A stretch of 64,000 nucleotides of DNA, from contig CALXLT010000042.1 of assembly GCA_944389275.1 (NCBI GenBank), positions 62,001-126,000 of the forward strand, in the 5' to 3' direction. This stretch comes from an uncultured Spirochaetaceae bacterium (lineage in GTDB: Bacteria; Spirochaetota; Spirochaetia; Sphaerochaetales; Sphaerochaetaceae). The position numbers and the translations under genes are program-made. Under the pieces are notes generated by a model. The model saw only the letters and a list, made by a program, of their open reading frames with translations, was not told the origin of the DNA and did not search any database. Within the stretch, counting starts at the first letter, position 1, and each line of letters starts with the position of its first letter. This document shows positions 7,894-41,528 of this stretch, one piece after another.

Positions 7894-9567
7894 TCAGGCT
7901 TGTCCTGCAGGTCGTTTACCTGCTGCCATCACGAGCGCACGCTTACGGTAGAACGATATTCCGAAGCCTATAATCCTATCGTAATCGACAAGGTCATTGC
8001 CGTATTCCCTGGCCTTGAGCTGGGATATGGCTTCCTCTGCCGAGGTCTTCATTCCCTCAAGGTTCTCTGCACGCTTGAGCTTAAAGATCGCGGCGGCACC
8101 TGCCTTCCTGTCGAGAAGTATGATGTCAGGCCGTCCTTCCCCTGATTCCCTGTTGGATCTGACGACATATCCAGCATCGGAGAGAAGCCCTGCAAGGAAC
8201 GCATGGTAGAAATTCTCCCGGAAATCATATGTGCTTATCGTCTGCCTGAGATATGAGGAGATCTCCTTTGAGAGAGATGCAGCATCCTCTTCCCATATAG
8301 CTTGGAACAGGGCTTTCCTGTCGCTTTCCCTAACGGTATCAGAGAACCAATCATCGACCGATGTGGCGAAGAGGTTCCTTATCTCCTCATTCGGAAGCCT
8401 GAGTTCTGTTTCTCCGTTCGGATCATATTCCCCTGCAAGCGTAAGGTATCCTGTCATCAGGAAGAGGCTCCAGATGTTCTCCTCGCTTGAATAGAGATTG
8501 CTGTAAGTAAGTGTCTCTATGATCCTCTTCCTTATAGTACCGCCGCTTATCAGAGTGGAATATTCATCTCCGACGCCGGCATCGGTCATATCTATAAGTC
8601 GTCTTATGGCTTCGTTCCCGCTTGAGTTTGCCCAGTAATTCTCCGGATTCGCATTCTTGTTAACCTGGAGTCTTGCTACATAGGAAATAACGTCCCACGG
8701 TGTATAGATATGTTCTTTCCCGATAGCATATCCGTCGTACCATTTCCTGATGATCTCTGCCTTATCTTCCAGTACCGCATCAGAGAGCAACCCTGAAACC
8801 TCTTCCTCGGTAAAGCCGAAGGAGTCAGCATAGCTATCTCCTGTTACAGAGTAGACTGCGAGGTTATTGAGTCCTGTGAAGAGGCTTTCCTTAGAGATTC
8901 TCAGACAGCCTGTGAGGATTCCTTTCTCCGTGTATGGGCAGTCCTTCAGAACGGAAAGAAGCATGCTGCGCATGACATCGAGCATCTCCCGGTAGTAGCC
9001 GTTCCTCTCTGCCTTATCAAGAGGTACATCATACTCATCAAGAAGGATGATGACCTTCTTCCCGTAATGGAGATAAAGAAGCCTAGCAAGGATTTCCATT
9101 GATTGTCTTATCTCGCTTATCGAGCAGCTGCCGCTGCAGATATCATTGAAGATCCTCCCTTCTTCGTCGCCTTCAGAAACGCTGATAAACGAATAGCCTT
9201 TATAGAGCGCTGACAGCTTTCCGCGGAGCTTATCGATGGCAGCATTGAAATCCAGTCCATCGATATCCTTGAAAGTAAGATAGATCACAGGACGCTTGTT
9301 CATCCAGTTGTCCACTGCGTCCATGTCACCCATGATGGACAGCTCTTTGAAGATATCCCGGCTATCCTCCCTTATATCGAAGAAGGCGCTGAGCATGGAC
9401 TGGAATGTCGTCTTGCCGAATCGACGAGGGCGAGTGAAGAGGATGGATTTCGCGCCATCTTGGATAAGAGTGCCTATAGCACCCGTCTTATCGACATAGT
9501 AATATCCGCCATTCCTTATTTCCCTGAAATCCGTTTCACCGATAGGGAGCCTTATTCCTCTGTCCAT
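7894..9567 (-). CDS. AAA-ATPase-like / PD-(D/E)XK nuclease-superfamily protein, copy 1
   Basis: A 557-residue protein of the AAA-ATPase_like plus PDDEXK_9 (DUF1703) type common in gut anaerobes. It opens with IGETDFREIRNGGYYYVDKT, then Walker A TRPRRFGKTT and Walker B VIILLDEYDVPL. The C-terminal nuclease-like segment reads RPDIILLD and then AIFKLK, where related proteins have ExK, so the catalytic Glu seems replaced by Phe. The family's role is unsettled. The start at 9567 is chosen for its AAGGAG ribosome-binding site. The second copy is at 38032-39618. Confidence 0.85.
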   Translation of the reverse strand: MDRGIRLPIGETDFREIRNGGYYYVDKTGAIGTLIQDGAKSILFTRPRRFGKTTFQSMLSAFFDIREDSRDIFKELSIMGDMDAVDNWMNKRPVIYLTFKDIDGLDFNAAIDKLRGKLSALYKGYSFISVSEGDEEGRIFNDICSGSCSISEIRQSMEILARLLYLHYGKKVIILLDEYDVPLDKAERNGYYREMLDVMRSMLLSVLKDCPYTEKGILTGCLRISKESLFTGLNNLAVYSVTGDSYADSFGFTEEEVSGLLSDAVLEDKAEIIRKWYDGYAIGKEHIYTPWDVISYVARLQVNKNANPENYWANSSGNEAIRRLIDMTDAGVGDEYSTLISGGTIRKRIIETLTYSNLYSSEENIWSLFLMTGYLTLAGEYDPNGETELRLPNEEIRNLFATSVDDWFSDTVRESDRKALFQAIWEEDAASLSKEISSYLRQTISTYDFRENFYHAFLAGLLSDAGYVVRSNRESGEGRPDIILLDRKAGAAAIFKLKRAENLEGMKTSAEEAISQLKAREYGNDLVDYDRIIGFGISFYRKRALVMAAGKRPAGQA

Positions 9568-9711
9568 GTCTTCTCCTTCTGAAAGTATACATTGCCTGCC
9601 TGAAAAGTACAAAGCATATGCTTTTGCCTGCATCCTTCGCGTTTTTAGACATGCTTGACCGTAACTTTCATTCCAATTGGATACCTGCAGGGAATGCAAT
9701 GTGGACCCGCA

Positions 9712-9744
9712 TTGACAAAGGTATACAGAGGGGGGGGGTAGTAT
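9712..9744 (+). promoter_or_regulatory. Candidate phase-variable promoter with 9-G tract in the spacer
   Basis: A perfect -35 TTGACA (9712-9717) is followed by a run of nine G (9730-9738) and a -10-like TAGTAT (9739-9744). The spacer is 21 bases; about five G would give the optimal 17. Slippage in the G tract would alter the spacer and switch transcription of the lipoprotein gene starting at 9773. Poly-G promoter tracts of this kind are known in Neisseria and in Treponema tpr genes. Confidence 0.55.
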
Positions 9745-9772
9745 TCTCCCAGACTTTTATCTGAGAGGGAAT

Positions 9773-11556
9773 ATGAGAAGAACGACAATATACATTCTGC
9801 TATCTGTCCTTGCGATGATCCTGATCATGTCATCATGCTGTAATGATAGGATCATACACACTGTTGTCTTTGATCCAGCGGGGGGAACATTGACTTCTGA
9901 GGAAACCATTTCGATTGAACATGGCAATGTCCTTGAAGAACCATCTGATCCATATCGGGCAAGATACTCATTCGCTTATTGGGAAAATATGGCAACAGAT
10001 GAGAAATATGATTTCACTCTTCCTGTTACATCAGATCTTATCCTTGTCGCCAAATGGAATTACCATGGAACTGGAAATGATGGGGATAGTGATGATCGTG
10101 CTTATACCGTAAAGTTTGATGCAAATCTTCCTTCGAACTTGGTTTCAGAAGCAATACCAGATATCGAAATCGCGGCAGGGAAGGGGATATCAGAAGAGGA
10201 AATGCCTGCATCTCCTGTGCTGTCTTCAGGTGCTGATGGATTTGCGTTCCTTGGATGGTATACAGTGGATGGCATTGAATACACTTCTTCCATTGTCATC
10301 AGCAGCGATACGACGCTTATTGCGCATTGGGTTTCGAAATGGGATGGCTCAGCTGATGCAGAGTCGATAACACAGCAGATAGAGGATCCAGGATGCGAGG
10401 AGATCAGGATCAGCACTGCAGCGCAATTAGCCGGTGTTGCGAAATTGATGGAAGATGATAAATCTTATCAGGATCATACGGAATCCTTTGGAAACAAGCC
10501 TTTGATCCTTGCCAATGATATGGATATGTCCGGTAACGGCTGGACTCCGATTGGCTATCATACGGAATATAACGGCTCAAATCATTTTGCCGGTGAATTT
10601 GATGGGAATGGCCATACGATAAGCAATGTATCCATATCCGGAGATGATTATAGCGGATTGTTCAGCTTTGTATCCGAAGAAGGCTACATCCACGATCTTG
10701 CTATCAAGGGAATCACTGTAATGAATGGCTCTTATCTTGGATAGCCGGGCGCAATGATGGTACGATTGAGAATTGCTCAATCCTGGAAGGGGAGAATATC
10801 GTAACAAGCAGCGGAGATTATATCGGAGGAATTGCCGGAGAGAACAATGGCAGGATAATCAATTCTCATTATCTTGGAGAATTGTCTTTCTCTGGAGATT
10901 TCAACGGAGGCATAGCCGGAGCTAATGGAAAGAATGGATATATCATGGCAAGCTCCTTCCAGATGAATGATGATGATTACATCGAGTCAAGCGGAGATTA
11001 TGATGGAGGTATAGCTGGCTACAATGAAGGGAATATCGTTGCATGCTATGTCCCGAAAGCATCATTCTATGACACGAAGGTCTGCAGTGGAGGAATTGCA
11101 GAAGCAAGCAATGACGGCCGTATATATGCATGCTATTTCTCTGGCGATATCTCATCAAATGAGGATTATATCGGTGGAATCACAGGGGCCAATGGCGGAA
11201 TCCTATCCGGATGCGGATTCATCGGAAGCATCGAAGGCGATGAATATGTTGGAAGCATAGCTGGAAGCAATACGCCGACAATCGAAATCGATCGCGATGA
11301 GATTGAGATGACAGGCTCTGTCGAAGATAGCGTTTCATTTACGAGACCGGATCAATGGGGCGATACGGCTGATGCAGTTGGTGAAGGTGATAGCTCAGGA
11401 GTTATCGTAATAGCAGAAGAGGAGAATTTCTGGGGTGAAGCTTTGAAAGTCTTGAATTCGGCAATTGACGACTGGAATAGTGCTTATCCTGAGAACCCCT
11501 GCCGTTATCGATATGAAACATCAGGAGCAAATCCTCCAAAGCTTATCGAAGCTTGA
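9773..11556 (+). pseudogene. Listeria-Bacteroides-repeat/GLUG-repeat lipoprotein, interrupted by a frameshift
   Basis: The first frame (9773-10744) encodes a lipoprotein signal peptide with lipobox MSSC (Cys near residue 22), two Listeria-Bacteroides (Flg_new-type) repeats (about 30-95 and 105-180) and the start of GLUG repeats. It ends at a TAG after SYLG. The second frame, open through 11556, continues at once with IAGRNDGTIENCS and further repeats such as DYIGGIAGENNG, DFNGGIAGANG and DYDGGIAGYNEG. Repair needs four bases restored near 10740, as in GGAGGAATA reduced to GGATA, a likely repeat-mediated deletion. The intact product would be a surface lipoprotein of about 595 residues. A GAGAGGGA ribosome-binding site precedes the ATG. 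Confidence 0.75.
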
Positions 11557-33700: not shown

Positions 33701-34146
33701 ATGCTGATTGGTGGTATGTGACCAAACACGAATATACTAATGCAGATAAAACAGTAATAGTTAATTGCGCACGAAATGCTACTATAACTAACGAAGTTGT
33801 TACTCCTGGATCAGTTCAATTCAAAGAATATAAGTATTTAAATCAAATTACTCTTAATATGGATTCTTCTACACTTTTAGATGTTTTTGTTGATACTTAT
33901 GGAGGTATTGGTGCTACTAATGAAATGAGTTCAATTACAGGGGAAAACTGTGATATTTCCATGGAATTCGATTCTATTAGTATCGAAGGAACTAATGTTT
34001 CTTATAAACCTGCTAATCTTACAGTTATTACATTAAATGTAAGAGATGGTAATGAGTCAGAAGGTGTTGGAATATACACAGTAAATGATTCAACTATTGA
34101 GATCACTAAAGATATATTTGATAAATATATAAAGGAGAAACCCTGA
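30727..34146 (+). CDS. Large lipoprotein with multiple FN3-like domains
   Basis: A 1139-residue AT-rich gene. The signal peptide ends in lipobox WSC (Cys near residue 23). Several repeats follow, each starting with the FN3-like pattern V-x-A-(T/S)-x-G-x-(Y/F)-x-D-x-(I/V)-x-(L/V)-x-W, for example KATCGFKDTITLSWDPV, TATDGTYSDKVVLTWDI and TASDGTYNDRISIGWDEI. The last 250 residues form a different C-terminal region. Such proteins occur in Treponema-like genomes as surface or periplasmic adhesin-type lipoproteins. ATG 30727 is chosen because GGAG lies upstream. The stop overlaps the next start (TGATG). Confidence 0.82.
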   Translation: MKRPLRYIAVFLFIFTIMVFWSCSMDSSEPSNSGTISYEKPYVPKNVKATCGFKDTITLSWDPVENASMYIIEGIEASRFGSAKMEEYGTTSSTSITFNLNGSGNGAYRVFDANQSYIFSVRAYINYGSSTDYLISDNSNYVEGCFAPETVQFHITVTNTSIRAYWNCSNLFSTLNNEKEPVQLYTPEFTLLYQKQGENSWHEIKASDDIDAQTLWLFTNLDVRKWGFEHSQEYVFMLRMNVKDTDALPVTSESISLRIDDSLDVSSVNNLTATDGTYSDKVVLTWDIPSWSLPANRSNSYFKIQRAQSGSDTWITLVDEIAEKDNINTTITPNGSSSITESITYEDKSAAPGVQYIYRVINGAIDTDNLIHNQEDNDAATANGRIFYPAPVKVSGEWAVDSNSHLKGTSTLSWGSLMTQIPSDLSYKIEKSVWHGKIDKTTKEFIDISPDEVSSGTKTISESVESLCTECSAEGTIHKYNYRLVITRGNSVVYELGIFFSDENRPTIGSVIENQIFTDFCVTNNGLNDYINAIRIEWKESTELSEADISYSYAIKNVGDKEYSSYRSLNPEYDSASGLMYFVINNINDSNEKQIKLSASYSVGDETITYPTAEDDIFVTGKRFDLSDIAITASDGTYNDRISIGWDEIAVSSENIVFSVEMDNSAIDTINPKNNTYEILDTNSHVTAGEDYSFSISAYNMNQSGTPKTYTKSDFGYILPIPKISNVTKAAYDDQIIVEWNDCGEKVDGYNIYVYDSRSMSESIHRETIEDANSFILSNDKLTLEAGVDYYFAVSGIKKNNTDTVVESKFYDRQDYFDELVENYPYGADPINVGYIFDGYFTANQIEITELVNGDYIADYFQIKIPVNKTIRSITISSTSGEDKSYKASDARTSSGRNAVDDFWIINEGTEAEPAWFAYINSQIGVVEIVNNNSIRVPVVYVQSFGPADNTSTELFTMNENGGYRRGLTNYDYIRLFNIVFREGVNSARSENADWWYVTKHEYTNADKTVIVNCARNATITNEVVTPGSVQFKEYKYLNQITLNMDSSTLLDVFVDTYGGIGATNEMSSITGENCDISMEFDSISIEGTNVSYKPANLTVITLNVRDGNESEGVGIYTVNDSTIEITKDIFDKYIKEKP

Positions 34147-36518
34147 TGCACAATATGGAAAAGCATATTATGAGATTTCTCATTTTGATTATTTCAATTG
34201 TTGCTTTGACATCGTGCAATTGGAATATAATTTCTGCAAATCCAGAGGATTTGAATCCAGGATCAGACAATCCAGCTTCTGTGATTGTTTTCACAGGTGA
34301 GGCGCCGAAGAACGTATATGCTTCACAGGCAGTTTATGCAGATTCTGTCATTGTTTCATTTGATGGTGTTGCTGGTGCGGATACATATATTCTCGAACGA
34401 ATAATCGTTGAAAAAGCTTCACCGGAATATGAAGAAACTGATTGGCGTATTCTTTCTATTATTCCAGCAGATTCCAGCAGTAATAGATACTCTTATACAG
34501 ATACTGATATAACAACGGCTGATTATGTTTATCTTTATCGAGTGAAAGCTTCAAGCCTTTATAGTGAGTTCAAGGGAGATGTAACAGCCAAATACTCATC
34601 AATTGCAAGAGGCTGGCCATTATCTCCTCCAACCTCATTAACGGCCTCCCAAGGTGAATATAATAATAAGATAGTACTTGAATGGTCTCAGGTTGATCTT
34701 GTCGCAGGGTATGATATTTATGCATATATTCCTGATGATAATGCGCCTGAAACATGGACAAAGATAAACAATAAAATTATCCCAGCTTCTTACGGGGCGG
34801 GCATGATTTCTTATGGCTATGACAGTATTCCTGAAAATGCTGCAGGTATAGATATTTCATTCAAAGTGAAAAGCATATCTAGAGGGAATGCCGAAAGTGA
34901 TTTCAGCGGAGCACGTATTGGATATACCTATATGCCAGGAGCTCCTAATACGCCAGAGGACCTTGAAGCTACAGATGCTTATTCATCTGAATATATTCAG
35001 GTTTCTTGGAAAATGCCTGATGTACAAGGGGTAAGTGAAGAACAATCATATTTCCGATGGGAAATATACAGAAGTACGCCTACTACTGATCAGGAACTGA
35101 TTTGTAGTTTTAATTACAATTCATATAATCCTCCAGCAACTCTTACAGAAAATGTCTCGATTTCCGAAGATGGAGAGTATTTTGTATTTAAGGACTTCCG
35201 TGATAACAGAACCGTTTCAGCGGGAGTTGAATATACATATACTGTTCGAGCTGTAAAAATTGAACCTACATCATCAGAAGGAAATACTGTACAACTGATC
35301 GGCAAATCAGATTCTGATACAGGAATGTTAATTGAACCATCTGTAACCATCACAGATACTAATACTACATATCCAGATGCTTCAGGTGCAGGAGGCTCTT
35401 TTGAATTCACTATTAATCCACCTAAGGTCTTACCTACATGTGATTCTTGGGCATATTCTATTTGGGGCCGACATAATTATATAGACCAAGAGGTGGGTGA
35501 TTGGGTATTCATCCAGGAGATTGATGGGAATGGCGGAGCTAATCCTGTTTCTGTGAAGATTCCATATAATCCTGGAACAGAAATCAATGAATTTGATGTT
35601 AGGATAAAAGATAGCGAAGGTGCGGTAAGCCTTGGATATGCATCATTCTATAACGAGCCTATTGTAACAAAACGGCAAGTTGCACCAAGTGCTTCGATAC
35701 TTACCGTTTCACAAAATAAATTTGATAGTCGTTTGGAAGGTCTTGCAAATGCTTCTGGTGTATATCCCGTCATTGCTAAGATAGGGACAGATCCAAATTA
35801 TAAGGTTTTCCAAATTGGAGCCTACTCTTTGAATATCTCTGGAGATTCAGCAGAGCAAGGAGTAGTAACGCTTAACAGTGAAGATGAAATAGTCCTTACG
35901 AATTTGAGTCCAACTTCTGTCGGAGAAAAGTGGTATTACAAAGTTAGAGGGGCTGATGTTTACGGTAGATGGAGCGAATGGAGTACGGCAAATTCAAGTA
36001 CATCAGATAAATATGCAGAAGGATATGGTGCTATCACAGGGGAAGCTTTTATCAAGTTCTTTGAAGCTTATGCTATGAAACCCTGGGAATTCATCAATCA
36101 TAGTGATTTTCCTGCAAACCTGAAGACTAAGTGGAGTACAAATGAAATCACGCGAAGGATAGTCAATGCAGTCGCAGAAGAATGTAATATTCCACAAGCA
36201 TCAGAATATCATAATGGAACAATGACATATAACGTAAAAGTTGTTATTCCTAATGGTGTTATTACTTTTACATATTCAAATTTCGGAGAAATAGAAGAAA
36301 TCTGGACTGAAAGTGGTTCATATTCTATGAGTGTTGGATTAAGCGGCAATGGATCAATATCCGCTAACAAGCCTTTCATAATAAAAGGAATGTATCCTGC
36401 AACGGTTCGGATAGATCCAGCTTATATGACTGTTAAATCCAAGGCTTTTGAAGGTGACTATGTCGTTATTCAGGAAAACGGCAAGGGACAGGAATTGGTG
36501 AAGGCTACGAGAAACTAA
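34146..36518 (+). CDS. FN3-like lipoprotein, second in operon
   Basis: A 790-residue lipoprotein with signal peptide and lipobox LTSC (Cys near residue 24). FN3-like modules are seen at about 50-140 (KNVYASQAVYADSVIVSFDGV), 155-255 (TSLTASQGEYNNKIVLEWSQV) and 265-385 (LEATDAYSSEYIQVSWKM), followed by a C-terminal region unlike FN3. AAGGAG precedes the ATG. It is coupled to the preceding gene and to the next (ATGA), and shares their AT-rich composition. Probably part of the same surface assembly. Confidence 0.82.
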   Translation: MHNMEKHIMRFLILIISIVALTSCNWNIISANPEDLNPGSDNPASVIVFTGEAPKNVYASQAVYADSVIVSFDGVAGADTYILERIIVEKASPEYEETDWRILSIIPADSSSNRYSYTDTDITTADYVYLYRVKASSLYSEFKGDVTAKYSSIARGWPLSPPTSLTASQGEYNNKIVLEWSQVDLVAGYDIYAYIPDDNAPETWTKINNKIIPASYGAGMISYGYDSIPENAAGIDISFKVKSISRGNAESDFSGARIGYTYMPGAPNTPEDLEATDAYSSEYIQVSWKMPDVQGVSEEQSYFRWEIYRSTPTTDQELICSFNYNSYNPPATLTENVSISEDGEYFVFKDFRDNRTVSAGVEYTYTVRAVKIEPTSSEGNTVQLIGKSDSDTGMLIEPSVTITDTNTTYPDASGAGGSFEFTINPPKVLPTCDSWAYSIWGRHNYIDQEVGDWVFIQEIDGNGGANPVSVKIPYNPGTEINEFDVRIKDSEGAVSLGYASFYNEPIVTKRQVAPSASILTVSQNKFDSRLEGLANASGVYPVIAKIGTDPNYKVFQIGAYSLNISGDSAEQGVVTLNSEDEIVLTNLSPTSVGEKWYYKVRGADVYGRWSEWSTANSSTSDKYAEGYGAITGEAFIKFFEAYAMKPWEFINHSDFPANLKTKWSTNEITRRIVNAVAEECNIPQASEYHNGTMTYNVKVVIPNGVITFTYSNFGEIEEIWTESGSYSMSVGLSGNGSISANKPFIIKGMYPATVRIDPAYMTVKSKAFEGDYVVIQENGKGQELVKATRN

Positions 36519-37246
36519 TGAAAAAGTTGTTTTTAATTTTGATAGTTTATTTCATTATGGTTATGGCTTCTTGTGACGCTATCATAACAAAGCCAGCTCC
36601 TTTTATTGGAAGTTATATTGTTAGAGAACGTCCAGGTTCACAAGGATATATATATAGCTTTAGTTTGCGTGATAACGGGGAATTCACTTTTATCCAATGT
36701 GGAGGAGCATCGACTTCTGAGACAATTGTATTTACAGGTAAATATGATTATACACTTAGTAGCTTTGATTTTTACAATTCAACAGGAACCATTATTTTTA
36801 TGCCTGAAGAGCCAAAGGATTCAAGTTTTGAGTCTTTGATTTTCACAGTTGGAATGGAAAATTCATACTCGTTTGAATGGGAATTACCTTTAACTACTGT
36901 AAATAGCCAGCTTGTTCTTATATCAAATAATAAGGCGGTAGGTCTTGATATAACAACAAGCCAAACGGGAGCTGCTGAATTAATTTCAAGTGCAGAATTT
37001 CAAACAATTCTCGATAATGCACTGAAAACAGAAGATGATGATTCTGATAGTGTTGATGACGGCAATGCTGATCAGCAGCCTTCACCAGATGACGACAATC
37101 CATCTATTGAGAATCCTGAAGATACTCCGCAGCAACCACCAGTGGAAGATGAGGAAGAACAGCCTGATAGCGATGGAAATGAGTCAGGAGAGGAAGAAGT
37201 AGTTCCTCCTGAAGAAGGAACTACAGAAGAGGAGGAAAAGATATGA
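36518..37246 (+). CDS. Small lipoprotein with acidic C-terminal tail
   Basis: A 242-residue lipoprotein: signal peptide MKKLFLILIVYFIMVMASC with Cys19, a beta-rich core (IGSYIVRERPGSQGYIYSFSLRDNGEF resembles small lipocalin-like lipoprotein domains), then about 75 residues almost only Asp, Glu, Pro, Gln and Ser ending EEEEKI. Overlaps the neighbouring genes by 1-4 bases. Function unknown. The acidic tail could bind cations or a partner protein. Confidence 0.78.
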   Translation: MKKLFLILIVYFIMVMASCDAIITKPAPFIGSYIVRERPGSQGYIYSFSLRDNGEFTFIQCGGASTSETIVFTGKYDYTLSSFDFYNSTGTIIFMPEEPKDSSFESLIFTVGMENSYSFEWELPLTTVNSQLVLISNNKAVGLDITTSQTGAAELISSAEFQTILDNALKTEDDDSDSVDDGNADQQPSPDDDNPSIENPEDTPQQPPVEDEEEQPDSDGNESGEEEVVPPEEGTTEEEEKI

Positions 37247-37833
37247 TTAAGAAAGCCGGAATAATCCTGCTCATATTATTGCTGTTCTCCTGTTCATTCC
37301 TCGCTGCATCTGAAGAGCCTCGCACAGAGCTGGATCCAAAAGGATGGTGGGAGGCTTTCTGGGACGGGGCATATGTTTCATATGATCTATATGGAAGATC
37401 AGTCCTGCTTGGAAATGATGATCTTAATTTCGGTGGCGGATTAAGCATTGGAGTAGAGACGGAGAATTTCCTTTTCCAGATATATGGCCAAGGAGATTAC
37501 TTCCTTTTCCCTCTTGGCTCAACGGGGACAGCTGCTGCTTTGGAATTCGATATTGAAGCGGGAGTGACATTAGGATGGAAATTCATCAAATTCTGGAATT
37601 TCGATGTCTTCCTTGCCTGTGATCTTGGGTATTTTGCTCAGTTTGTCCAGACGCATTATCAGCCTAATGGATATACCATTGGCTTCAATGGGATAATGCT
37701 CAGGCCAAAGCTTATGACAGAGCTTAATATCGGGAAATATTATGGGATATCCGTTGGTGTCTTCTATCAGTTCCCGCTTTATCCAAGCTACAGCAGATAT
37801 CAAGGTGTTGGAATAATGGTTTCAATACTCTGA
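37243..37833 (+). CDS. Small outer-membrane beta-barrel protein
   Basis: A 196-residue exported protein: signal peptide MIKKAGIILLILLLFSCSFLAAS, then WWEAFWDGAYVSYDLYG and about eight amphipathic strands ending VGIMVSIL. The size fits an 8-stranded barrel. The signal peptide contains FSCS but a lipobox is not convincing. It closes the operon, which thus runs lipoprotein x3 then barrel, as the shorter operon at 27557 runs lipoprotein then barrel. GC content is higher than in the preceding three genes. Confidence 0.75.
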   Translation: MIKKAGIILLILLLFSCSFLAASEEPRTELDPKGWWEAFWDGAYVSYDLYGRSVLLGNDDLNFGGGLSIGVETENFLFQIYGQGDYFLFPLGSTGTAAALEFDIEAGVTLGWKFIKFWNFDVFLACDLGYFAQFVQTHYQPNGYTIGFNGIMLRPKLMTELNIGKYYGISVGVFYQFPLYPSYSRYQGVGIMVSIL

Positions 37834-37857
37834 TTTATGATTTCTATTTTACTGTAT

Positions 37858-37889
37858 AAAGCTCCAGCAGTATTTTCAGTTGGAGCTTT
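37858..37889 (+). terminator. Terminator-like hairpin after lipoprotein operon 2
   Basis: A 9-base stem AAAGCTCCA / TGGAGCTTT with a 14-base loop, 24 bases after the last stop. The 3' side ends in TTTCTC, a weak T tract. The rest of 37890-38031 shows only AT-rich sequence and a TATACT box at 38017-38022. Confidence 0.6.
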
Positions 37890-38031
37890 CTCAATATCAT
37901 CTAAGTAACACAAAAAATTATTATCTCTTTATATTATCAGATAATATCTGAATTCTAGCATTTCTTGTACCGTCAAGAACTGTGACTCAATTCATATTAG
38001 ATAAGAAAGAAGTAACTATACTACTGATGAT

Positions 38032-39618
38032 ATGAGGAACGTGAATATTGGCATTTCATCGTTCAGCAGCCTGATCGAGGATGGGCTTGTCTATGTCGAT
38101 AAGTCGATGTATGGATACAACCTTCTGAAAGCGGAATCAGCAAGGTTCTTCTTCATTGCCAGGCCTCGTCGCTTTGGGAAGAGCCTCTTTGTCTCCATGC
38201 TCGAGTCAGCACTTATGGGTAAGAAGGAGATGTTCGAAGGGCTGTACCTAGGATCATCTGACTATGACTTCCATCCTTATCCCGTGATCCATCTTGATAT
38301 GTCAAAGCCCACTGCAACCGATGGGGTTGACGTATTTCGTAAGAGCCTCACGCTGCATATAGCCGAGGCCGTGTCGGAATATGGACTAGATCTTTCCAAG
38401 TACATGTTCAGCCCAAGCGACCTCTTCATGGGAGCCATAAAGGAGCTGAATGCGAAGACAGGAGAGCGTGTTGCGATCCTGATTGATGAGTACGATTACG
38501 TCCTGACAAGCACATTGGATAAAAAGGACGGGAATGAGATAAGAGAGGTGACGAAAGAGCTGTACGGCAAACTCAAGCCCTGCGCGAACAAGATACGCTT
38601 CCTGTTCATAACGGGTATAACCCGTTTCTCCAATCAGTCCATATTCAGCAAGCTCAACAATCTTGTCGATCTTACCTTCAGCAAGGAATTCGCGGCTGCA
38701 TTCGGCTACACGCAGAGCGAAATGGAAGCATATTTCGAAAACGGCATTGCTGAATATATGAAGGACCATGAAGGAGCAGGACGGGATGATCTCATAGATA
38801 ATCTTAGGCATTGGTATGATGGATACCGTTTCTCCGATAATGCAGAGAAGGTTTATAACCCCATATCGATCAATTCGTTCTTCAGGAGCGATGAGAAGGC
38901 ATTCGAGCCATATTGGGGGAGGACAGCGTCCACATCGATGGTCGTGAAGCTTGCCAGGCGCGCGAACCTCGCATTCCTGCCGAATAACCTTCTTTCCGTA
39001 CGGAAGAGCATCCTTGAGAACTTCAGCATAGATGACTTCGCGCCAGAGGCGGATCTTAGTATCAAGAATATCTATGGATACCTTTACATGACAGGCTATC
39101 TCACGCTCGATCATAAGAGTGGTGATGATATGCTCCTCACCATTCCCAACCATGAGGTCGAGAAGATAATCACCGAGGTGTTTTCCACGGCTTTCCTCGG
39201 GGATGACAGCTCTGATGATATCAAGAAGGAGATCGAGGAAGCTGTCCTATGCGATGATGTAGATAAGCTCGGGAAGGCTATCAGCGAGATAATCCGCATT
39301 CCGACCTATGACATGAGGATAGATGCGGAGAGGTTCTATCAGGCGCTGATCTTTTCTGTCGCGTCCCTTTCCTGTAGGATCGAGGTCAGGGCTGAGGAGC
39401 ATACGGCGCGAGGACGCTCTGATCTTGTGTTCATCGCGAAGGGAAGGGCGGTCATCACGGAGCTCAAGCTCGAAAGGAGCGCGGATGAAGCCATCTCGCA
39501 GATCAAGGAAAGAGGATACGCGGATAAGTACCTCGGGAAATATGATGAGGTATGGCTGCTGGGGGTAAGCATCGCGAGGGAGGATCTTCAGGTTTCCTGG
39601 AAGGCAATTCATTTATAG
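38032..39618 (+). CDS. AAA-ATPase-like / PD-(D/E)XK nuclease-superfamily protein, copy 2
   Basis: A 528-residue protein of the same family as the one at 7894-9567. N-terminal ISSFSSLIEDGLVYVDKS, Walker A ARPRRFGKSLF (about 44-54), Walker B AILIDEYDYVL (about 147-157), and a C-terminal nuclease segment GRSDLVFIAKGRAVITELKL with intact Asp and ExK, unlike copy 1. The full-length frame suggests function. Family role is unclear; many copies occur in gut anaerobes. No Shine-Dalgarno sequence precedes the ATG. A TATACT box ends 9 bases upstream, so the mRNA may be leaderless. Confidence 0.85.
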   Translation: MRNVNIGISSFSSLIEDGLVYVDKSMYGYNLLKAESARFFFIARPRRFGKSLFVSMLESALMGKKEMFEGLYLGSSDYDFHPYPVIHLDMSKPTATDGVDVFRKSLTLHIAEAVSEYGLDLSKYMFSPSDLFMGAIKELNAKTGERVAILIDEYDYVLTSTLDKKDGNEIREVTKELYGKLKPCANKIRFLFITGITRFSNQSIFSKLNNLVDLTFSKEFAAAFGYTQSEMEAYFENGIAEYMKDHEGAGRDDLIDNLRHWYDGYRFSDNAEKVYNPISINSFFRSDEKAFEPYWGRTASTSMVVKLARRANLAFLPNNLLSVRKSILENFSIDDFAPEADLSIKNIYGYLYMTGYLTLDHKSGDDMLLTIPNHEVEKIITEVFSTAFLGDDSSDDIKKEIEEAVLCDDVDKLGKAISEIIRIPTYDMRIDAERFYQALIFSVASLSCRIEVRAEEHTARGRSDLVFIAKGRAVITELKLERSADEAISQIKERGYADKYLGKYDEVWLLGVSIAREDLQVSWKAIHL

Positions 39619-39668
39619 ATTGTTTGTGTGGTTGCCCCGCGCATGTTCAATAGAAGCCCTTCTTCCTG

Positions 39669-39674
39669 TATAAT
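39669..39674 (+). promoter_or_regulatory. -10 box of barrel/lipoprotein pair
   Basis: A perfect TATAAT with a weak -35 TTCAAT at 39646-39651 (spacer 17). The start codon is at 39694 with AGGAG before it. Confidence 0.5.
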
Positions 39675-39693
39675 CCTTCCTCAGGAGCAGAAG

Positions 39694-40278
39694 ATGAAGA
39701 GAATCCTTATTCCCTTGATGCTTTTCCTTGCGGCCCTCTCAGGCCTTGGCGCGGCATCATATTACGATACAGGCTCGCAGATATTCACGATCACGGCCGG
39801 CGTGTCAACGCCTATGTCATATACATCGCATGGGGAGTCCATGTTCTGGCCGGGTTCCGGAGAAGGGCAGACGCACCATACAGTTGGCGGCATCGGAGCG
39901 CTGAGCTATCAGATATTCGTTACGCCGTATCTCGCGATAGGAGGCGAGCTCGGATACCAGTTCGACTTCTCCCGCTCCGGGGACGTGAGCACGAACGTGC
40001 CTATCACGGCCAAGCTTACCTATGTGCCGGTGCAGGGTGATTTCGATATCCCCATCTCCCTCGGGCTCGGCATGGACTACATAAGCTATGACTCATACTC
40101 GAAGATATCCTTCGGCCTCACGTTCGAGGTCGGGTTCAGGTACTACTTCACGGAAAGCTGGGGAGTTGGCATCAACACAGGTCTTCTTGTCGTCCCTGAA
40201 GTCTACTTCGACAGGGCTGAGAAGAACAGCGTCATGACATATATCCCAGCCACGATCAGTGTGACATACAGGCACTAG
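39694..40278 (+). CDS. Outer-membrane beta-barrel protein (OmpW/TP0733-like size)
   Basis: A 194-residue exported protein with signal peptide MKRILIPLMLFLAALSGLGA followed by an 8-strand-like pattern (GGIGALSYQIFVTPYLAIGGELGYQF, SFGLTFEVGFRYYFTESWGVGINTG) and an ending ISVTYRH. The size and strand pattern are those of small spirochaetal barrel proteins. ATG 39694 has AGGAGCAGAAG upstream; the frame is open earlier but without a signal peptide. It is followed 11 bases later by a lipoprotein gene, the reverse of the lipoprotein-then-barrel order in the two other clusters. Confidence 0.75.
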   Translation: MKRILIPLMLFLAALSGLGAASYYDTGSQIFTITAGVSTPMSYTSHGESMFWPGSGEGQTHHTVGGIGALSYQIFVTPYLAIGGELGYQFDFSRSGDVSTNVPITAKLTYVPVQGDFDIPISLGLGMDYISYDSYSKISFGLTFEVGFRYYFTESWGVGINTGLLVVPEVYFDRAEKNSVMTYIPATISVTYRH

Positions 40279-40289
40279 GAGGAAAGGAA

Positions 40290-41528
40290 ATGAAAAAGAT
40301 CAACATGCTTCTGATTACGCTTATCATGATCCTCCTCTCATCCTGCAACCTGGACTCAAACCAGGGCGTCCTGCAGATGGCCTATAACGCGACGCATAAG
40401 ACAGGCTACACGATAACCGACGTCTATGGCACATACGATAACGGGACAAAGGTCCTCATGAACAGGGACCATGACCTATGGTATGCCACCACGGAAGGCA
40501 ATGAGCTCAAGCAGGTCAAGGTCAAGGACCTTACCCGCAGCATGGTAACCCCTATATTCATCAATGAAAGTGGCACTCTCTTCTACGCCTACAGGGAGGA
40601 TTCCAGAAGCGAGTTCAGATTCGGCTCAGCGTCTATTGAGGATATCTCGAGCGAGAACTTCAGCTTCATAGATAACCTCAATCAGGAGGGCGCGGAGCTA
40701 CAGGGCATCACGAAGTTCTACAGCACGAACCTCAACCTTGACGAGTGCCTCATCGTCTATGGCACGGATAAGGAGACTTATTACTGCAAGATCACCGATA
40801 AGCGTACCGCATCTTCCCTCTCTCTTTCCGGCGAGGTCGGACTGACGAATCTGAAGGACCATGCTGGAAACGCCATCGATACAAGGGCGGCGACAATATT
40901 CGGCACCGATGCCCTCTTCGTCTATTACGAGGACAGCGATCTCGAGAACACCCCCGACAAGCTTGCAGTGATACGCGTCGACGGCACCTCTCCTGAGGCT
41001 GTAACCCTTGGCGTCGATGAGGACAATATCCCGATGGGATACGATGGGGGATACTTCATCACATTCGACGGAGACCTTTATCAGTTCAATGATCAGTCGA
41101 ACAATGGCTATGACCGTATCGGAGGCTTTGTGTCTGATCTGAGATACAGGATCAACCACCGCCTTGTCCTCTCCAACGACGATCCGGACAGGAATGTCGG
41201 CTTCATGTACCGCAACGGCGTCTATGTCCGCGTGGTCAATGACAACAACGTCAGGCCAAGGATCCTCTCCATCGACAACAACGATAACGATATCATCTCG
41301 ACATCGTATATCGGGCACACTGAGACCACGAAGGGGGAGGAAACCTATGACAGGTATCTCTACGCGACACAGAACAACAGCTTCATCATCCTCGAAGTCG
41401 GTCCTGGCACGCTCAATTCATTGGGATCCAATCCGCGCTATGAGTACCAGGTGGATGACAGCATGCTGCAGCAGTACAATCCGCGTGTGCATGGGGATAT
41501 CTCTCAATACACGGCAAGCAGCAACTGA
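40290..41528 (+). CDS. Hypothetical lipoprotein, possibly beta-propeller-like
   Basis: A 412-residue lipoprotein: signal peptide with lipobox LSSC (Cys near 19), then repeating short blocks of the type DLWYATTEGNELKQVKVKDL, TLFYAYREDSRSEFRFGSA and LYQFNDQSNNGYDRIGGF, which suggest a beta-propeller. A strong ribosome-binding site AGGAGGAAAGG precedes the ATG. In operon with the barrel protein before it. No enzyme motif seen. Confidence 0.72.
   Translation: MKKINMLLITLIMILLSSCNLDSNQGVLQMAYNATHKTGYTITDVYGTYDNGTKVLMNRDHDLWYATTEGNELKQVKVKDLTRSMVTPIFINESGTLFYAYREDSRSEFRFGSASIEDISSENFSFIDNLNQEGAELQGITKFYSTNLNLDECLIVYGTDKETYYCKITDKRTASSLSLSGEVGLTNLKDHAGNAIDTRAATIFGTDALFVYYEDSDLENTPDKLAVIRVDGTSPEAVTLGVDEDNIPMGYDGGYFITFDGDLYQFNDQSNNGYDRIGGFVSDLRYRINHRLVLSNDDPDRNVGFMYRNGVYVRVVNDNNVRPRILSIDNNDNDIISTSYIGHTETTKGEETYDRYLYATQNNSFIILEVGPGTLNSLGSNPRYEYQVDDSMLQQYNPRVHGDISQYTASSN

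What the first reader, a model, noticed from the sequence alone, without database searches (positions are those of the whole stretch)
9712..9744. Nine-G tract inside a promoter spacer: probable phase variation
A perfect TTGACA and a TAGTAT box are separated by 21 bases, of which nine are a G run. Loss of four G would give 17. The gene behind it encodes a repeat-rich lipoprotein, the usual kind of target. Poly-G promoter control is established for Neisseria and Treponema surface proteins.
Basis: partly seen in the sequence, partly recalled or inferred. Interest (0 to 1): 0.7.

Follow-up and report, generated by a model that had tools for sequence, protein, structure and literature searches.

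The report
Lipoprotein promoters with length-variable G runs
The run of nine Gs sits between the two halves of a gene's promoter and is one of many such promoters in this uncultured spirochete genus, nearly all in front of lipoprotein genes, so the bacteria probably switch surface proteins on and off by gaining or losing Gs.

Summary
In detail: TTGACA (9712-9717), a 21-base spacer ending in nine G (9730-9738), and TAGTAT (9739-9744), 34 bases before a lipoprotein gene. It is not isolated. The same architecture (TTGAC, G run, TANNNT flush against the run, lipoprotein start shortly after) gives about 275 matches in 38 of 48 genomes of the genus, against 10 for the backward control pattern. Of 115 tracts read in detail, 99 have TANNNT flush after the run and 96 lead into a lipobox-bearing ORF. 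Near-identical promoter copies within one genome differ in run length. Best reading: promoter-spacer phase variation, as in Treponema pallidum tp0126 and Neisseria porA, but deployed as a genus-wide lipoprotein cassette. Switching itself is inferred: no reads or expression data were available.

The parts
9712..9717 (+). -35 box TTGACA (perfect)
   Evidence: TTGACA in 96 of 115 family tracts
9718..9729 (+). non-G arm of the spacer, 12 bases (family usually 9 or 10)
   Evidence: arm 9 or 10 in 87 of 115 family tracts
9730..9738 (+). run of nine G, 3' part of the spacer, flush against the -10 box
   Evidence: family runs 8-15, nine in 59 of 115
9739..9744 (+). -10 box TAGTAT
   Evidence: TANNNT flush after the run in 99 of 115 family tracts
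9763..9769 (+). ribosome-binding-site-like GAGAGGG
   Evidence: read directly
9773..10744 (+). lipoprotein ORF, 323 aa, lipobox cysteine 22, Listeria-Bacteroides repeats (PF09479); ends at a stop where the frame breaks
10742..11556 (+). continuation of the same protein in another reading frame (GLUG-like repeats by eye; no Pfam hit for 10882-11553)

Best explanation
The site is a sigma-70-type promoter whose spacer contains a slippery run of G. Replication slippage adds or removes G, changing the -35 to -10 distance and so the strength of transcription of the lipoprotein gene behind it. It is one of a genus-wide set: roughly 5-16 such promoters in most genomes that have them, sharing upstream A-rich sequence, TTGACA, a 9-10 base arm, G8-12, TANNNT, leader and signal-peptide sequence, but leading into unrelated mature lipoproteins. 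The working distance is probably 18-19 bases; at 21 the window promoter is predicted to be weak or off, and it would approach the working distance by losing about two G. Shown: the architecture, its repetition, its association with lipoprotein genes, different run lengths in near-identical copies. Inferred: slippage within a population, dependence of expression on length, surface exposure, and the benefit (changing the exposed coat).
For: TTGACN4-16-HG8 matches: 111 in 15 of 15 genomes, 94 in 13 of 21, 70 in 10 of 12; backward control 1, 3 and 6. These are all 48 held genomes of the genus (one search lists 48); contig-end duplicates are included. Own genome: 19 distinct tracts of nine or more G, 14 of them in this context. 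Of 115 tracts in 16 genomes, TANNNT is flush after the run in 99 and the run leads into a lipobox ORF in 96; 7 more end at a contig end. The same lipobox test flags 7 of 50 ORFs in the window, which itself holds a lipoprotein cluster. Of 32 within-genome promoter pairs with flanks at least 85% identical, 21 differ in run length, including G9 against G10 with identical 90-base flanks, G9/G11 and G8/G12 with two flank differences. In 8 genomes no pure run of 4-7 G was listed in the common 9-10 base arm context except one of five G (spacer 14), so long runs are kept. Interrupted copies show that a pure run is not needed for the spacing, yet pure runs outnumber them (264 in the 30 genomes searched, summed, against 17 interrupted matches of all kinds). 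Precedent in a spirochete: passages of PMC7864442 say the tp0126 G run lies between -35 and -10 and that its length sets expression.
Against: No reads, no sister strains of this species and no RNA data; length differences are between paralogous copies in assemblies, and short-read assembly can mis-size G runs. Spacers cluster at 18-19 (73 of 115), which could also mean that most of these promoters are simply on and the distance is held by selection. In arms of 9 against 10 bases the run compensates (ten or more G in 17 of 33 against 13 of 54, Fisher p 0.011; without genome G024 16 of 32 against 6 of 46, p 0.0007), which also fits selection for a fixed distance. The window copy has an unusual 12-base arm, lacks the A-rich upstream stretch seen by eye in most copies, and its gene is frameshifted.
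Confidence: 0.74

Rival explanations
1. The G run is a fixed structural part of one lipoprotein promoter class (for example favouring a particular DNA shape next to the -10 box, or bound by a regulator). Its length is held near a 19-base spacer and the variation seen is neutral noise or assembly error.
For: Spacers peak at 18-19; 12 of 13 interrupted copies with a 9- or 10-base arm are at exactly 19 (Fisher p 0.013 against 48 of 87 intact); arm and run compensate between arms of 9 and 10.
Against: Over the whole range of arms (5-16 bases) run length does not compensate (Spearman -0.11, p 0.26), so spacers range from 15 to 26. Near-identical copies differ by up to four G. A structural G-rich element would not need to be a pure run.
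Confidence: 0.19
2. The window copy is a decaying member: a former phase-variable lipoprotein gene whose promoter has drifted to 21 bases and whose reading frame is broken. Not exclusive with the best explanation for the family.
For: Spacer 21 with a 12-base arm (3 of 115 tracts have that arm); frame break at 10742; no ortholog in the other 47 genomes, only repeat-level matches of 38% identity or less over the four best.
Against: Both halves are otherwise open for over 300 and 260 codons without further stops; a single break can be an assembly error or a recent event.
Confidence: 0.4
3. The G run acts as one arm of a hairpin that ends or attenuates transcription entering from upstream.
For: A terminator-like match at 9732-9750 (G run pairing with TTCTCCC, then a T-rich tail).
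Against: The C-rich partner is not seen by eye behind the other runs listed; the family-wide constant is the TANNNT box, not a hairpin. The other hairpin at the start codon folds no better than shuffles (z -0.08).
Confidence: 0.03
4. Chance arrangement or assembly artefact.
For: Uncultured genome in 57 contigs; homopolymers are error-prone.
Against: Chance expectation 0.01 in the window; about 275 matches against 10 for the backward control over 48 genomes.
Confidence: 0.02

Closest known systems
tp0126 (OmpW homolog) promoter of Treponema pallidum
   Same: G run between -35 and -10 of a spirochete outer-membrane protein gene; length sets the box distance (passages of PMC7864442).
   Different: Single porin-type gene, optimum reported as 17; here dozens of lipoprotein genes per few genomes, G run flush with the -10, apparent optimum 18-19.
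tprE, tprG, tprJ and tprL G runs of T. pallidum
   Same: G runs in promoters of outer-membrane proteins; 8 or fewer G permissive for tprE/G/J; tprL run varies 7-11 within isolates (passages of PMC7864442).
   Different: Different protein family; that paper's passages do not place the tprE/G/J run in a -35/-10 spacer.
porA (poly-G) and opc (poly-C) of Neisseria meningitidis
   Same: porA G run lies between -10 and -35 and controls transcription by spacing (passage of PMC7864442).
   Different: One or a few genes in a pathogen; no shared promoter-plus-signal-peptide cassette.
Multi-gene phase-variable repertoires (N. meningitidis, Campylobacter, Helicobacter)
   Same: Many homopolymer switches in one genome (title and abstract start of PMC5084427; passages of PMC11868660).
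   Different: Those sets mix in-frame and promoter switches over many gene types; here nearly all readable cases are one promoter type on one protein class.

Membership tests
Promoter-spacer (porA/tp0126-type) phase variation | Homopolymer lies between -35 and -10 boxes | tested here: met
   TTGAC before and TANNNT flush after in 99 of 115.
Promoter-spacer (porA/tp0126-type) phase variation | Run length differs between otherwise identical copies | tested here: inconclusive
   21 of 32 near-identical within-genome pairs differ, but these are paralogous copies, not the same locus in different cells.
Promoter-spacer (porA/tp0126-type) phase variation | Expression depends on run length | not testable with these tools
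   No expression data.
Promoter-spacer (porA/tp0126-type) phase variation | Transcription starts just after the -10 box | not testable with these tools
   No transcript ends available; gene starts 25-46 bases after the run in nearly all readable cases fit.
Promoter-spacer (porA/tp0126-type) phase variation | Optimal spacing near 17 | tested here: inconclusive
   Intact runs peak at 18-19 and interrupted ones at 19; function at each length not measured.
Spirochete surface lipoprotein | Signal peptide with lipobox cysteine | tested here: met
   Window gene, cysteine 22; 96 of 115 by a pattern test.
Spirochete surface lipoprotein | Exposed on the cell surface | not testable with these tools
   Inferred from repeats (PF09479) and, in relatives, adhesive or beta-helix domains.
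T. pallidum Tpr/OmpW phase-variable proteins | Homologous protein | not tested
   No direct comparison was made; the Pfam scans of the window protein and 17 relatives' ORFs returned no Tpr or OmpW family.

The most novel reading that the evidence does not exclude
A whole genus of uncultured, gut-type spirochetes carries a modular surface-coat switch: one promoter-leader-signal-peptide cassette with a slippery G spacer, copied in front of unrelated lipoproteins (in part next to insertion sequences), tuned to a 19-base rather than 17-base optimum, so that each cell displays a random subset of a large lipoprotein repertoire. Similar G-spacer promoters in front of secreted proteins occur in many other gut lineages.
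Probability: 0.35. Interest if true: 0.75.

Novelty: new variant of a known kind. Interest (0 to 1): 0.62.

Why it matters
Large phase-variable repertoires are known mainly from pathogens, and a 2025 review says this may reflect database bias (passage of PMC11868660). A genus of uncultured spirochetes in which essentially one promoter type puts most copies of a G-run switch on lipoprotein genes would be a clear non-model case. It gives a ready set of about 275 sites on which length dependence, switching rate and the apparent 19-base optimum can be measured, from metagenomic reads alone.

Tried and rejected
Chance and artefact: rejected for the family by the backward control and shuffles. Hairpin or terminator role: one terminator-like match at the window copy, not seen by eye in the other copies; start-codon hairpin not better than shuffles. 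A second sigma-70 promoter in 9500-9850 with 16-18 spacing: none found. Looking for the same promoter in viral contigs of other strains to see other run lengths: two scans, no match. Ortholog of the window gene in the genus: only repeat-level matches. One search was meant to count G8 or more over the class but the pattern as written takes exactly eight G; it still shows concentration (matches in 15 of 35 genomes of this genus and 11 of 359 others, counted from its table), and control matches in one genome.

Literature searches made for novelty. None of the listings showed a paper on G-run promoters in uncultured gut spirochetes; only those seven searches, in open-licence PMC papers, support that statement. 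The link of the genus to named records rests on equal contig lengths (G011:C19 = 102574 = CALXLV010000019.1, G007:C11 = 39061 = CALXYI010000011.1, G008:C83 = 8351 = CASDZV010000083.1), all named uncultured Spirochaetaceae or Spirochaetales; the genus name was not established.

Rows dropped: two tracts seen twice in overlapping fetches (L198, L204) were removed before counting 115. Detailed loci are 100 fetched tracts (all listed matches of G001, G007, G008, G011, G013, G016, G017, G019, G020, G024, G027, G028, G030, G032, G035) plus 15 own, out of about 275; matches of the other genomes were not fetched. Interrupted copies: 20 sites fetched, picked by eye; the '12 of 13' counts those with arms of 9 or 10 bases (L308, L309, L311-L317, L319-L322); two others have spacer 16 (L310, L318), and L323-L327 are other short-run sites with spacers 18, 18, 18, 19, 18. 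Of the 12, one has lost its lipobox cysteine (L314), one leads into a weak ORF (L308) and one is cut by a contig end (L319).

Full report
What is there. At 9712-9744 a perfect TTGACA is followed by 12 bases, nine G and TAGTAT. An ATG with a GAGAGGG ribosome-binding-like sequence follows 34 bases after the run, and the ORF begins with a signal peptide and a lipobox cysteine at residue 22. The protein has Listeria-Bacteroides repeats (PF09479). The frame stops at 10742-10744 and goes on in another frame to 11556 with GLUG-like repeats. The pattern TTGACA-N6-14-G8 is found once in 64 kb, expected 0.01.

It is one of a family. The window lies in an uncultured genome of 2.23 Mb in 57 contigs. That genome has 19 distinct runs of nine or more G; 14 follow TTGAC within 16 bases, and one more of eight G does so. 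Of the other five, L005 (TAAAAT flush after the run, lipoprotein) and L001 (C run beside TATACT, lipoprotein-like start) look like variants of the same idea; L020 lies inside a tail-protein ORF, L025 upstream of a reverse transcriptase, and L012 has no clear context. Over all 48 held genomes of the genus the pattern TTGACN4-16-HG8 gives 111, 94 and 70 matches, in 15 of 15, 13 of 21 and 10 of 12 genomes; the backward control gives 1, 3 and 6. Copies at contig ends may be counted more than once.

Anatomy of 115 tracts from 16 genomes. TTGACA is complete in 96; TANNNT is flush after the run in 99; runs are G8 (16), G9 (59), G10 (28) and longer (12); the arm between TTGACA and the run is 9 or 10 bases in 87; upstream of TTGAC an A-rich stretch is common. 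Spacers range from 15 to 26, with 25 at 18 and 48 at 19. In 96 the run leads into an ORF with a lipobox start, in most cases 25-46 bases on; 7 have no ORF because the contig ends. The remaining 12 include further contig-truncated and frameshifted starts and a few that are truly different (for example L008, L235, L258). The same simple lipobox test flags 7 of 50 ORFs of the window, a generous background because the window has a lipoprotein cluster.

Mosaic build. In five genomes, promoter, leader and signal-peptide DNA of paralogs average 70-83% identity while the first 300 bases of the mature part average 61-64% under the same global alignment, which is close to what unrelated DNA gives (inference; no random baseline was run). 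So a shared expression cassette heads different cargo. Pfam finds little in the cargo: of 10 relatives two have beta-helix or pectate-lyase-like adhesive domains and eight have no hit; of six more, one weak carbohydrate-binding hit and one weak adhesive/GLUG hit.

Evidence for slippage. Among 32 within-genome pairs with flanks at least 85% identical, 21 differ in run length. Three contigs of G027 have identical 90-base flanks with G9, G10 and G10; in G032 G9 and G10 with one flank difference and G9 and G11 with two; in G024 G8 and G12 with two. This shows that the run changes faster than its flanks among copies; it does not show change between cells at one locus.

Which length works. In 8 genomes the search down to four G listed no run of 6-7 G in the 9-10 base arm context and one of five G (spacer 14). 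Copies whose run is broken by one T or A, and which should slip little, have a spacer of exactly 19 in 12 of 13 with that arm; intact runs with that arm are at 19 in 48 of 87 (Fisher p 0.013). Most of these broken copies still lead into a lipoprotein start. I infer that 18-19 is the working distance. The window copy, at 21, is then predicted to be weak or off, and two G too long rather than four. Against this: the T. pallidum and Neisseria cases are reported to work best at 17 (passages of PMC7864442).

Fixed spacer or switch. Between arms of 9 and 10 the run compensates, which fits selection for distance; over arms of 5-16 it does not (Spearman -0.11, p 0.26), so many copies stand at distances that should be poor. 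Pure runs far outnumber broken ones (264 against 17 matches of all kinds in the same 30 genomes), although broken ones keep the distance. I read this as selection to keep the run slippery, but it is inference.

How far it reaches. In other families of the class the same pattern is rare (5 of 24 genomes, some clearly simple G stretches, exactly eight G: 11 of 359), with exceptions such as G336, which has nine. This was not tested against a control.

Known or new. The mechanism class is known, in a spirochete too: tp0126 (passages of PMC7864442). Seven literature searches listed nothing on such a promoter family in uncultured gut spirochetes. I therefore call it a new variant of a known kind: same principle, but one promoter cassette, mostly on one protein class, over a genus, with a different apparent optimum.

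Noticed in passing
L020 (G000:C39), run at 1500-1509: Ten G inside the coding frame of a baseplate/tail-fibre-like ORF (Gp10_C, PF21939) next to a paralog without the run: a possible phase-variable phage tail gene.
   Followed up: partly
L025 (G000:C52), run at 1500-1509: Ten G about 181 bases upstream of a reverse-transcriptase ORF (RVT_1), with TATTCT flush after the run but no clear -35.
   Followed up: partly
L001 (G000:C4) around 1480-1560: A C-run version: TTGCAA, nine C and TATACT in front of a lipoprotein-like start whose frame is short.
   Followed up: partly
L225, L226, L227, L232 (G011) and L206 (G007): The same insertion-sequence end (transposase-like OrfA pointing away) lies 39-41 bases upstream of TTGAC in 4 of 10 tracts of G011 and 1 of 7 of G007; it may help spread or rearrange the cassette.
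   Followed up: partly
G000:C35, C39, C49 contig ends (L015, L022, L024): Three contigs share an identical promoter at their ends, so assembly broke at this repeat; in L022 the promoter runs into no lipoprotein.
   Followed up: no
L080-L159 (public genomes): G-run promoter spacers flush with TANNNT before secreted or lipoprotein-like genes in many gut lineages outside spirochetes.
   Followed up: partly
window 34146-41528: A cluster of lipoprotein-like ORFs (34146, 36518, 37243, 40290) without any run of seven or more G in front.
   Followed up: no
window 7894-9567: Divergent neighbour: AAA-ATPase-like protein with PD-(D/E)XK domain (PF09820, PF08011); an ORF with a similar N-terminus by eye lies at 38032-39618.
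   Followed up: no
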